From an uncultured Cytophagales bacterium (GTDB lineage Bacteria; Bacteroidota; Bacteroidia; Cytophagales; Thermonemataceae): a stretch of DNA of 64,000 nt. Below are positions 26,131 through 31,727 of the stretch, piece by piece. The position numbers were made by a program, and so were the translations under genes. Each line of letters begins with the position of its first letter. The stretch's first letter is position 1. Below the pieces are notes generated by a model. It worked only from the letters and a program-made list of their open reading frames with translations, did not search any database and was not told the origin of the DNA. The stretch is taken from NCBI GenBank assembly GCA_938002655.1, contig CALLAC010000001.1:1-64000 (forward strand), read 5' to 3'.

Positions 26131-26162
26131 CAAAAATACAAAAAAGAAAAATGTTTCTTCAA
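26131..26162 (-). promoter_or_regulatory. Bacteroidota-type promoter for the DUF1015 gene
   Basis: TTG-N21-TATTTTTG on the minus strand. Confidence 0.6.
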
Positions 26163-26170
26163 ATATAAAC

Positions 26171-26202
26171 AAAAAAGGAAGCAATTTCTTAAAAATGCTT
26201 CC
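26171..26202 (-). terminator. Intrinsic terminator of the small-protein bicistron
   Basis: Minus strand: GGAAGCA-N12-TGCTTCC followed by TTTTTT. Confidence 0.8.
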
Positions 26203-26243
26203 AGCAATGAGTTATTGCTTAAATATGCTTGTAGTAAACTTTT

Positions 26244-26471
26244 TTAAGCGAGTACGCCTTCGGGAAGTTCTATCTGATACATTTCCTTGATAGAGTTTTT
26301 GATGGCAGTTATCATCGCTGCATCCAACATCATTGTTTCGTTGGGGCTATTAGCCTCTGTTATTCCCCAGCCTTTGGCTTTGAATAGGTCCAAATTTTTC
26401 ATTACTATTCTTTGCCAAGCCATAGGTGTAATGTTTGCATCACACCATTCTTTAATTTTAAGAGCATTCAT
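26244..26471 (-). CDS. Small protein of unknown family, paralogue of the 26484-26720 product (75 aa)
   Basis: Shares 'ALKIKxW...I.P.AWQRIV.K' and 'KE.YQ.E' with upstream neighbour. Confidence 0.8.
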   Translation of the reverse strand: MNALKIKEWCDANITPMAWQRIVMKNLDLFKAKGWGITEANSPNETMMLDAAMITAIKNSIKEMYQIELPEGVLA

Positions 26472-26483
26472 TTTTTATTGTTG

Positions 26484-26720
26484 TTAAGCGGTTACGAGTT
26501 CAGGTAAGACTTCGGTTTGATACAACTCTTTTACAGCGGCATCAATTGCTGCGAAAGCTTTTTCTGAAAACACAAGAGTTTCAGAAGGGTTCATCAAGGT
26601 GTTTAGCTCAAAGCCCATTTCTTTGAGTGTAGGCAAAGCCTTCAAAACAATTCTTTGCCAAGCAAGCGGCGAAATTACTTCTTCGCTCCAAGATTTTATT
26701 TTTAATGCAGACACTTTCAT
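26484..26720 (-). CDS. Small protein of unknown family, paralogue of the 26244-26471 product (78 aa)
   Basis: Same motif; 12-nt gap to the downstream paralogue; consensus promoter upstream. Confidence 0.8.
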   Translation of the reverse strand: MKVSALKIKSWSEEVISPLAWQRIVLKALPTLKEMGFELNTLMNPSETLVFSEKAFAAIDAAVKELYQTEVLPELVTA

Positions 26721-26761
26721 GACCGTAACAGTTTAGGAATTTTATAGTAAAAAATACAGTA

Positions 26762-26791
26762 CAAATATACCAAATTTTTTGTAAAAATCAA
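26762..26791 (-). promoter_or_regulatory. Bacteroidota-type promoter for the small-protein bicistron
   Basis: TTG-N19-TATATTTG on the minus strand. Confidence 0.75.
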
Positions 26792-26852
26792 ATTTTAGTA
26801 TACTGATTTTAATCATTTTTTCGATGAAATAGGTGATTTTCTCGACGAAGTT

Positions 26853-29432: not shown

Positions 29433-31727
29433 CTACTGATTTTTCAGGTTAGGAATAACGAAATAAATTTTAGTTCCTTTGCCAAGTTCTGACTCCAAAG
29501 AGATTTCACCGCCCAATTTGTTGATAGCTTCTTTTACAATATACAAGCCCAAGCCCGAACCAGCGAGCATGTCATTGGCTCTGTAAAACATATTAAACAC
29601 TTTATCCAAGTGATTTTTATGAATACCTATGCCATTATCTTGTATACTTACTTTGGCTTGCTTGCGTGTAACTTCTATTTTTACTTTGATGAAAGGCTTT
29701 TGCTGACGCATATTGGCGTATTTGATAGCATTGGAAAGCAAATTGTTGAAAATGATATTCAAACGGCTTTTATCGGAGTAGAAGGGAATTTTACTCTTGA
29801 TTTCAACGAGTTTTGAAATATGTTTGGAATTTTCCATATAATTGTACTGCTCAAAGCAGTTTTCAATCAGTTCTTGAAATTGAATATTTTCGGGCTGAAT
29901 ATCCAAACGAGCATTGCGAGAGTAGTCTAAAATATCTTTGATAAAATTATCCAGACGGCGAATACTTTTTTCTTGCAAACTCAAATATTCTTGAATTTGG
30001 GATATATCGTCGGTCATTCGGGCAAGCTGAATAAGTCCTAAAAGCGAAGAAATAGGGGCTCGTAAGTCATGAGAAACACTGTACACAAATCTATCTAATT
30101 CTGAATTGGCTTTACTCAGTTCTTCGTTGGCTTTGCGTATTTTCTCTTCTGCTATTTTTCTTTCGTGAATATCTAACGTAACGCCTGAAACACCTTGTAA
30201 TTTTCCATTTTCCTTGATAGCTTGTGCTTTGGTAAGAAACCATTTGTAATTGCCTGTATCTTTTTGATACTGACGCAGTTCTAGTTCATAGTTATCAATT
30301 TCTCCTGCAACCAACTTATCAAAATATTCGGCGAGTTTCTCTCTGTCTTCGGGATGAATGTATTCTTTGAGTTCTTGGCGGTTTTTAGGAACTTCATCGG
30401 TATCAGGGTTCATTCCGAATGAAATAAAAGTTTGCTTTGACCAAAAGATTTCACCTGTTTGGGTATTGGTATACCAAGACCCCATTTTAGCGAAGGTTTG
30501 GGCGTCTTCAAGTACTTGATTGGCTTTTTTGAGTTCATTTTCTTTTTGGCGAACTAGTTCCAAAGTATTTTTCAGGCGTTCTTCGCGTTTGGCAAGTTCT
30601 TCATTGAGCCGTTTTTCAGTTTCGAGTGCTTGAATAATTTTCTCTTCTGCCAGGGTTTGTTGGGTTACGTTATGTATAATTACCAGAACAGCATTGATAG
30701 TAGGCTCACGGAGCAGATTTTTAGCTTTGATTTCCATCCAATGAGCAGAGTTATCTTTATAGACAATGCGGAAAGTAGTACGAAAGAGTTTTCGGCGGGT
30801 ATTGATTACCTCGAAAAAGATTTTTTGAGCAAGTGAAGAGTCGTAAGGGTGTACTAGATCGAAAAAATTCTCGCCGTGTAGTTCGTTGCTCTGAAAGCCC
30901 CAACTCTTGTGAGCCGCAGGCGAAGCGTATAGAATAGTAGCGGCTTCGTCAAGCAAAAGTACCGAATCTTCTAAATTTTCAATGAGCAATTGGAATTTTT
31001 TGTTTTGGCTATCCAACAACTCTTCTACAAATTTATCCTGACTGCTAATATCTCGGAAAATCACATAAATATAAGCTTCTCCGTCATTTTCATCATAAAA
31101 GATTTCAGCTTTTACAGGTATTGTAGAGCCATCTTTTTGTAAAAAAAGTGAAATCATCTCGTAAGGCTCGGGGCTACGCTGTTTCACTTCAATCAGAAAG
31201 CGTTTCCAAGCATTAGGATTTTTTTGTTGGGCTAAATCGTTTTCTATTTCTAAAAATTTTTTGTTACGTATTTCTTCTAAACTATTGTAATGCAAATATT
31301 TGAGGGCAGAATGATTGGCTTGTAAAATATTACTGTTTTCTATATCTACAAACAAAATGCCTTCGCTTATTTCTTGGAGAACTTTTTGCAATTTGGGGGC
31401 AATATAGCTTCCTGCTTCCGAAATTTGCGAGTAAACAGTCCAAAGCCATTGATTTTGCTCTGCAAAAGGAATTATCTGCGAAAAGAGGGGTTTTTCAGAA
31501 ATCTTGTAATTCACATCGCCTATCCAAGTTTGTTGAGGAAGTTTTTCTACAAAAACATCGTTGAGACAATTATCTAAAAAATTGAATTTACCGAAATTTT
31601 TGCTTGAAATCTGAAAAAGACGTTGGGCTATGTTATTAGCTTGTAGAAGGATTCCTTTTTCGTTGATAATTATCCCTGCACACGTATCTCCTAATAAATT
31701 GAGCATATATTCTGCTACTGAAAGCAT
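29433..31727 (-). CDS. Multi-PAS sensor histidine kinase
   Basis: PAS-like segments; 'SVSHDLRAPISSLLGLIQLA' H-box; 'IFNNLLSNAIKYAN', 'GSGLGLYIVKEAI'. Confidence 0.93.
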   Translation of the reverse strand: MLSVAEYMLNLLGDTCAGIIINEKGILLQANNIAQRLFQISSKNFGKFNFLDNCLNDVFVEKLPQQTWIGDVNYKISEKPLFSQIIPFAEQNQWLWTVYSQISEAGSYIAPKLQKVLQEISEGILFVDIENSNILQANHSALKYLHYNSLEEIRNKKFLEIENDLAQQKNPNAWKRFLIEVKQRSPEPYEMISLFLQKDGSTIPVKAEIFYDENDGEAYIYVIFRDISSQDKFVEELLDSQNKKFQLLIENLEDSVLLLDEAATILYASPAAHKSWGFQSNELHGENFFDLVHPYDSSLAQKIFFEVINTRRKLFRTTFRIVYKDNSAHWMEIKAKNLLREPTINAVLVIIHNVTQQTLAEEKIIQALETEKRLNEELAKREERLKNTLELVRQKENELKKANQVLEDAQTFAKMGSWYTNTQTGEIFWSKQTFISFGMNPDTDEVPKNRQELKEYIHPEDREKLAEYFDKLVAGEIDNYELELRQYQKDTGNYKWFLTKAQAIKENGKLQGVSGVTLDIHERKIAEEKIRKANEELSKANSELDRFVYSVSHDLRAPISSLLGLIQLARMTDDISQIQEYLSLQEKSIRRLDNFIKDILDYSRNARLDIQPENIQFQELIENCFEQYNYMENSKHISKLVEIKSKIPFYSDKSRLNIIFNNLLSNAIKYANMRQQKPFIKVKIEVTRKQAKVSIQDNGIGIHKNHLDKVFNMFYRANDMLAGSGLGLYIVKEAINKLGGEISLESELGKGTKIYFVIPNLKNQ

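What the first reader, a model, noticed from the sequence alone, without database searches (positions are those of the whole stretch)
26171..26791. Autonomous bicistron of two paralogous ~75-aa proteins of unknown family
Seen directly: two adjacent minus-strand ORFs (78 and 75 aa, 12-nt gap) share ALKIKxWxxxxIxPxAWQRIVxKxLxxxKxxG...PxET...I..xxKExYQxExxPE. No signal peptide or TM segment is evident. The pair has its own near-consensus promoter (TTG-N19-TATATTTG, 26762-26791) and its own terminator (26171-26202). I do not recognise the family. A tandem-duplicated small cytosolic protein with a dedicated promoter suggests a highly expressed accessory or regulatory function, or a peptide/RiPP-like or heteromeric pair (inference).
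Basis: partly seen in the sequence, partly recalled or inferred. Interest (0 to 1): 0.68.

Follow-up and report, generated by a model that had tools for sequence, protein, structure and literature searches.

The report
Paired small proteins tied to phosphatase signalling
Two neighbouring ~75-residue helical proteins of a hot-spring bacterium (Raineya group, Bacteroidota) belong to an unnamed family found here only in the order Cytophagales, whose relatives sit next to, or are fused to, a class of signalling phosphatase; they are most likely small adaptor proteins of that signalling pathway rather than peptides, toxins or enzymes.

Summary
ORF-A (26244-26471, 75 aa) and ORF-B (26484-26720, 78 aa), 12 nt apart on the minus strand, are paralogues (43% identity, E=5e-21) under purifying selection (dN/dS 0.09-0.16), with an exact Bacteroidota promoter and a terminator conserved in one of two congeners. 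No Pfam, NCBIfam, PHROG or PADLOC family and no solved structure matches convincingly. Both fold confidently as a compact helical domain (pLDDT 94).

Relatives occur in 20 of 292 sampled genomes of the order and in no other genome among 396 drawn across the phylum. All eight sampled genomes of the window's family carry them, usually as tandem pairs. Relatives lie 9-50 nt from genes for response regulators with a SpoIIE-type PP2C phosphatase output in three lineages (1.1 kb in a fourth), with a histidine kinase and sometimes SiaB/SiaC. One is the N-terminal domain of a SpoIIE phosphatase; others go with a V4R-like protein. The window's genome has 16 SpoIIE domains, and the orthologous regulator lies 149 kb away.

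Best explanation: adaptor proteins of two-component/PP2C partner-switching signalling (about 0.6). Both models resemble the helical half of H-NOX gas sensors, but fold and profile scores are not significant.

The parts
26762..26792 (-). Bacteroidota-type promoter TTTG-N19-TATATTTG of the pair
   Evidence: exact consensus match; motif enriched in the window, 20 vs 4.9 expected; partly conserved in R. orbicola
26484..26720 (-). ORF-B, 78-aa helical protein, first gene of the pair
   Evidence: dN/dS 0.10-0.13; AlphaFold pLDDT 93.6, pTM 0.83
26244..26471 (-). ORF-A, 75-aa helical protein, second gene of the pair
   Evidence: dN/dS 0.09-0.16; AlphaFold pLDDT 93.9, pTM 0.81
26171..26202 (-). Terminator-like stem-loop with T6 tail after ORF-A
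   Evidence: seen in sequence; conserved in R. orbicola, not in Raineya sp. SKYG86

Best explanation
The pair are small cytosolic adaptor (regulatory partner) proteins of a Cytophagales signalling pathway that runs histidine kinase -> response regulator with a SpoIIE-type PP2C phosphatase output -> dephosphorylation of partner-switch proteins (SiaC type). Shown: the same domain is found immediately beside response-regulator/SpoIIE genes in several lineages, in clusters with a histidine kinase and SiaB or SiaC genes, and as the N-terminal domain of one SpoIIE phosphatase. Inferred: the free-standing form binds the regulatory part of the phosphatase (or its kinase) and switches or scaffolds it, much as RsbT does for RsbU; ORF-A and ORF-B act as two specialised versions or as a heteromer, working in trans on the response-regulator/SpoIIE protein encoded about 149 kb away on the same contig.
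For: Fusion: in G005 the domain is the N-terminus of a 379-aa protein with a SpoIIE domain, PF07228 E=8e-22. Adjacency: 9 and 12 nt from a response-regulator/SpoIIE gene in G268 and G250, 32-33 nt in two Reichenbachiella species, 50 nt (convergent) in G004, 1.1 kb in G002; receiver and SpoIIE domains confirmed for the G004 protein. Kinase and SiaB/SiaC genes are in the same clusters. With one SpoIIE gene per ~165 kb (16 in 2.64 Mb), adjacency within 1 kb is expected about 2% of the time by chance (my estimate). The window's genome has 16 SpoIIE, 5 SiaB-type and 7 SiaC-type matches and the orthologous regulator at G000:C1:175274-176509, 60% identical to the G002 one. All eight sampled f1 genomes have both. 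ORF-A groups with the copy in the G002 response-regulator/SpoIIE cluster, support 82/67. Both proteins are conserved and confidently folded.
Against: In Raineya itself the pair sits between MBOAT and DUF1015-type genes, not beside a signalling gene; Thermonema pairs are also not beside SpoIIE genes. Response-regulator/SpoIIE homologues occur without the family in f4 and f2 genomes. One subfamily goes with V4R-like proteins instead, so the partner may be more general than SpoIIE. No physical interaction or activity was tested; tree supports are modest.
Confidence: 0.6

Rival explanations
1. The family is a detached, heme-less version of the N-terminal helical subdomain of H-NOX gas sensors, which relays or competes with H-NOX or globin signals to the kinase-phosphatase pathway (a more specific form of the best explanation).
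For: PDB fold searches of both models return H-NOX/sGC N-terminal subdomains repeatedly, TM 0.47-0.57, best probabilities 0.51 and 0.54. One profile comparison puts the invariant W on the conserved W of H-NOX with P=0.0048; 60 shuffles scored lower. An H-NOX gene lies between histidine kinase and response-regulator/SpoIIE genes in G007 (Thermonema) and globin genes lie beside SpoIIE genes in the window's genome.
Against: No fold E-value below 0.48; H-NOX structures are numerous in the PDB. Other H-NOX alignments give P 0.04-0.14 and an unrelated family reached 0.003. The heme-binding half is absent.
Confidence: 0.22
2. A general protein-interaction domain with no special tie to SpoIIE; Cytophagales use it to dimerise or localise many proteins, and in Raineya the pair serves a process related to its neighbours.
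For: A second subfamily is linked with V4R-like and 101-aa proteins; the Raineya and Thermonema pairs lie among varied genes.
Against: Neighbours of the pair are housekeeping genes and change: in SKYG86 an ATPase-like gene intervenes. The non-V4R subfamily is repeatedly tied to SpoIIE.
Confidence: 0.2
3. A RiPP-like peptide pair, bacteriocin pair or toxin-antitoxin pair.
For: Two small adjacent genes with their own promoter.
Against: Conservation spans the whole protein; the two genes are paralogues; both fold as globular domains; the domain is fused to larger proteins; no modification genes nearby; no phage or plasmid relatives; no convincing PADLOC match.
Confidence: 0.04

Closest known systems
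RsbT/RsbU control of a PP2C phosphatase (Bacillus partner switching)
   Same: A separate protein, or an N-terminal domain, controls a SpoIIE-family phosphatase; RsbT raises RsbU kcat and lowers its Mn2+ requirement (PMC8080068); in G005 our domain is N-terminal to the phosphatase
   Different: No sequence match to RsbT or to the RsbU N-terminal domain in Pfam; control here is not shown
SiaABC(D) partner switch (Pseudomonas aeruginosa)
   Same: SiaB/SiaC-type genes lie in the same clusters in G268, G250 and (SiaB) Reichenbachiella; in P. aeruginosa SiaA (PP2C) and SiaB (kinase) set SiaC phosphorylation (PMC7647112)
   Different: The small family has no counterpart in the Sia system that I know of; it is not SiaA, SiaB or SiaC by Pfam
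H-NOX (HNOB, PF07700) N-terminal helical subdomain
   Same: Similar length, helix order and a W in the second helix; bacterial stand-alone H-NOX proteins partner with histidine kinases or diguanylate cyclases (PMC8196705); an H-NOX gene lies in a related operon in Thermonema
   Different: Lacks the heme-binding C-terminal half; similarity not statistically significant

Membership tests
H-NOX (PF07700) | Pfam HNOB profile match | tested here: not met
   no HNOB match at E up to 10 for any of 23 members; a true H-NOX from Thermonema scores 1e-34
H-NOX (PF07700) | C-terminal heme half with proximal His and YxSxR | tested here: not met
   proteins end at 75-78 aa, before that half begins
H-NOX (PF07700) | N-terminal helical subdomain fold | tested here: inconclusive
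   recurrent best family in fold search but E >= 0.48; profile P 0.0048 to 0.14 depending on the alignment
RsbU N-terminal domain (RsbT binding) | Pfam profile match | tested here: not met
   no such match in Pfam at E up to 10
RsbU N-terminal domain (RsbT binding) | located N-terminal to a SpoIIE-type PP2C domain | tested here: met
   G005 fusion, PF07228 at residues 180-378; free-standing in the window
Regulator of PP2C phosphatase (functional class) | binds the phosphatase and changes its activity | not testable with these tools
   needs biochemistry; only gene context is available
SiaC or STAS partner-switch substrate | SiaC (PF09345) or STAS profile match | tested here: not met
   no Pfam match
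RiPP precursor | leader/core layout with variable core and maturation genes nearby | tested here: not met
   globular folds, conserved to the last helix, housekeeping neighbours

The most novel reading that the evidence does not exclude
A new lineage-specific signalling domain: the N-terminal helical half of an H-NOX gas sensor, split from its heme half, kept as heterotypic tandem pairs and used as adaptor or input domain for two-component-driven PP2C phosphatases and V4R-like sensors.
Probability: 0.22. Interest if true: 0.72.

Novelty: new variant of a known kind. Interest (0 to 1): 0.5.

Why it matters
The genomes of this bacterial family carry 15-32 SpoIIE-type phosphatase domains each, and I found no paper on how their inputs are wired. 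A small, well-folded family that repeatedly travels with and fuses to these phosphatases, in thermophiles that should give well-behaved protein, offers a direct handle on that question. If the H-NOX resemblance is real, it would also show half of a gas sensor reused as a heme-free adaptor.

Tried and rejected
Pfam, NCBIfam, PHROGs, PADLOC and PDB-sequence searches of the pair, and Pfam and PDB searches with a 23-member alignment: nothing convincing; weak RpoN and 2kob matches are partial and non-significant. Fold search against viral models: nothing. Phage and plasmid tblastn: no match. H-NOX homology looked good in one profile comparison (P=0.0048) but fell to P 0.04-0.14 with other alignments, and an unrelated family reached 0.003, so it is kept only as a lead. 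Acyl carrier protein, the other recurrent fold match for ORF-A, gave P 0.12. Response-regulator/SpoIIE loci of genomes without the family beside them were read for a hidden family gene or an H-NOX gene: none seen. Literature searches for H-NOX plus SpoIIE and for SpoIIE signalling in Bacteroidetes gave nothing on this family. Rfam: nothing at the locus.

Full report
What is there. Two minus-strand ORFs, ORF-B (26484-26720, 78 aa) and ORF-A (26244-26471, 75 aa), lie 12 nt apart. They align over their whole length with 33/76 identities, E=5e-21. An exact Bacteroidota promoter motif, TTTG-N19-TATATTTG, ends about 40 nt upstream of the ORF-B start (26762-26792); the motif is four-fold enriched in the window over shuffled sequence, 20 versus 4.9. 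A stem-loop plus T6 follows ORF-A (26171-26202), and the next gene downstream (DUF1015-type by my recognition, not scanned) has its own promoter-like site (26131-26163). In Raineya orbicola the layout is the same, including the terminator. In Raineya sp. SKYG86 the pair is intact, but the terminator is not conserved and a 556-aa ATPase-like gene lies between the pair and the next gene. Pairwise dN/dS among the three genomes is 0.09-0.16 for ORF-A and 0.10-0.13 for ORF-B. These are real, selected proteins in their own transcription unit.

Which organism. The closest named genome is Raineya orbicola (88% identity for ORF-A), a slightly thermophilic hot-spring bacterium for which Raineyaceae was described (PMC5982127). 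Thermonema falls in the same sampled family (f1) and also carries the genes.

What family. No Pfam, NCBIfam, PHROG, PADLOC or PDB-sequence match is convincing for the pair, nor, in Pfam and the PDB sequences, for a 23-member alignment of relatives. Profile searches of whole genomes find the family in 20 of 292 genomes of the order, including all eight sampled members of the window's family, and in one (the window's own) of 396 genomes drawn across the phylum. Conserved positions in ORF-A numbering are K7, W9, P16, A18, W19, Q20, R21 and Y65; W19 is invariant. AlphaFold models made with 14 sequences are confident: ORF-A pLDDT 93.9, pTM 0.81; ORF-B pLDDT 93.6, pTM 0.83; essentially all-helical.

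The pair is a recurrent arrangement. Tandem heterotypic pairs occur in all four sampled genera of f1: Raineya and G002 (g1), G004 (g2), G005 (g3) and Thermonema (g4, with pairs at two loci in G007). In a tree of 33 members, ORF-A groups with the G002 copy in the response-regulator/SpoIIE cluster (82/67) and ORF-B with the other G002 copy at the equivalent MBOAT locus (89/61), so the A/B split is older than the split within the genus; supports are modest. That second G002 copy has a broken frame before its last helix.

The company the family keeps. (1) In G005 the domain is the N-terminal ~75 residues of a 379-aa protein whose C-terminus is a SpoIIE-type PP2C phosphatase, PF07228 E=8e-22. (2) Members lie beside response-regulator/SpoIIE genes: 32-33 nt downstream in two Reichenbachiella species, in an operon with a SiaB-like gene, a coiled-coil membrane protein and a histidine kinase; 9-12 nt in G268 and G250, with a histidine kinase and, divergently, SiaB (PF19788) and SiaC (PF09345) genes; 50 nt, convergent, in G004, with a histidine kinase behind the regulator; 1.1 kb in G002, past two tandem small proteins that I read as STAS-like (Pfam gives only a sub-threshold unrelated hit), in a cluster with a very large PAS histidine kinase. 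(3) A second subfamily, lacking about three residues before the last long helix, is followed by a ~420-aa V4R-like protein (V4R sub-threshold, E=0.001-0.015) in G002, G028, G042, G072, G098 and G108 (a ~101-aa protein follows in the complete operons), and is fused to it in G128; the G002 version carries the domain twice and lies in the same cluster as the SpoIIE-linked copy. (4) In G268 another member overlaps a globin gene.

The partner in the window's genome. This genome has 16 SpoIIE, five SiaB-type and seven SiaC-type matches. The response-regulator/SpoIIE protein at G000:C1:175274-176509 is 60% identical to the one beside the family gene in G002 and 53% to that in G004; it lies about 149 kb from the pair on the same contig, with no kinase or family gene beside it. 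All eight f1 genomes have both this homologue and the family. Several f4 genomes have the regulator with no family member found, so the family is an optional addition to the pathway.

How it probably works. Established elsewhere: SpoIIE-type PP2C phosphatases are controlled through N-terminal regulatory regions, and RsbT raises the kcat of RsbU and lowers its Mn2+ requirement (PMC8080068); SiaA (PP2C) and SiaB (kinase) set the phosphorylation of SiaC in P. aeruginosa (PMC7647112). Inference: the family domain is an input or adaptor domain that contacts the regulatory part of such phosphatases, covalently in G005 and in trans elsewhere; the A and B forms are either two specialised adaptors or one heteromer. 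Which partner they touch, the signal and the output are not shown.

The H-NOX lead. PDB fold searches of both models return H-NOX/sGC N-terminal subdomains repeatedly (TM 0.47-0.57 for the better ones, best probabilities 0.51 and 0.54), but no E-value is below 0.48 and H-NOX structures are numerous in the PDB. Profile alignment places the invariant W on the conserved W of H-NOX with P=0.0048 for one diverse set, but 0.04-0.14 for others, and an unrelated family reached 0.003. H-NOX and globin genes also flank phosphatase genes of this kind (Thermonema; two places in the window's genome), which makes the idea attractive; statistically it is unproven. The proteins are in any case not H-NOX proteins: the heme half is absent.

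Verdict. A real, unnamed, lineage-specific family of small helical proteins tied to signalling genes. Biochemistry is needed to go further.

Noticed in passing
G000 (the window's whole genome): A 2.6 Mb genome with 16 SpoIIE-type phosphatase, 5 DUF6272/SiaB and 7 SiaC matches: an unusually dense partner-switching network.
   Followed up: partly
G000:C8:27892-28545 (L127 5893-7030): A SpoIIE domain without its receiver domain, 71% identical to the C-terminal half of the response-regulator/SpoIIE protein, followed by a globin gene; looks like an N-terminally truncated copy. A globin gene also precedes a response-regulator/SpoIIE gene at G000:C41.
   Followed up: partly
L111 4923-8731 (G007, Thermonema): Histidine kinase, H-NOX (PF07700 E=1e-34) and response-regulator/SpoIIE genes in a row, suggesting a gas-sensing input to this phosphatase pathway.
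   Followed up: partly
L065 4088-6084; L066 3178-5031; L072 5189-7334; L073 4883-6707; L054 9921-12046; L069 6019-7825: Uncharacterised three-part operon: a member of this family, a ~420-aa V4R-like protein with the motif FHCHHYN, and a ~101-aa protein; first two fused in L069.
   Followed up: partly
L055 4858-5143 (G002): The upstream (B-type) copy of the pair in G002 has a broken reading frame before its last helix; the C-terminal residues continue in another frame.
   Followed up: yes
window, whole: The Bacteroidota promoter motif TTTG-N17-21-TAnnTTTG occurs 20 times against 4.9 expected, useful for marking transcription starts elsewhere in the window.
   Followed up: no
window 29433-31727 (-): A 764-aa protein that reads like a multi-PAS histidine kinase, two genes upstream of the pair and conserved in R. 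orbicola; possible but untested partner.
   Followed up: no
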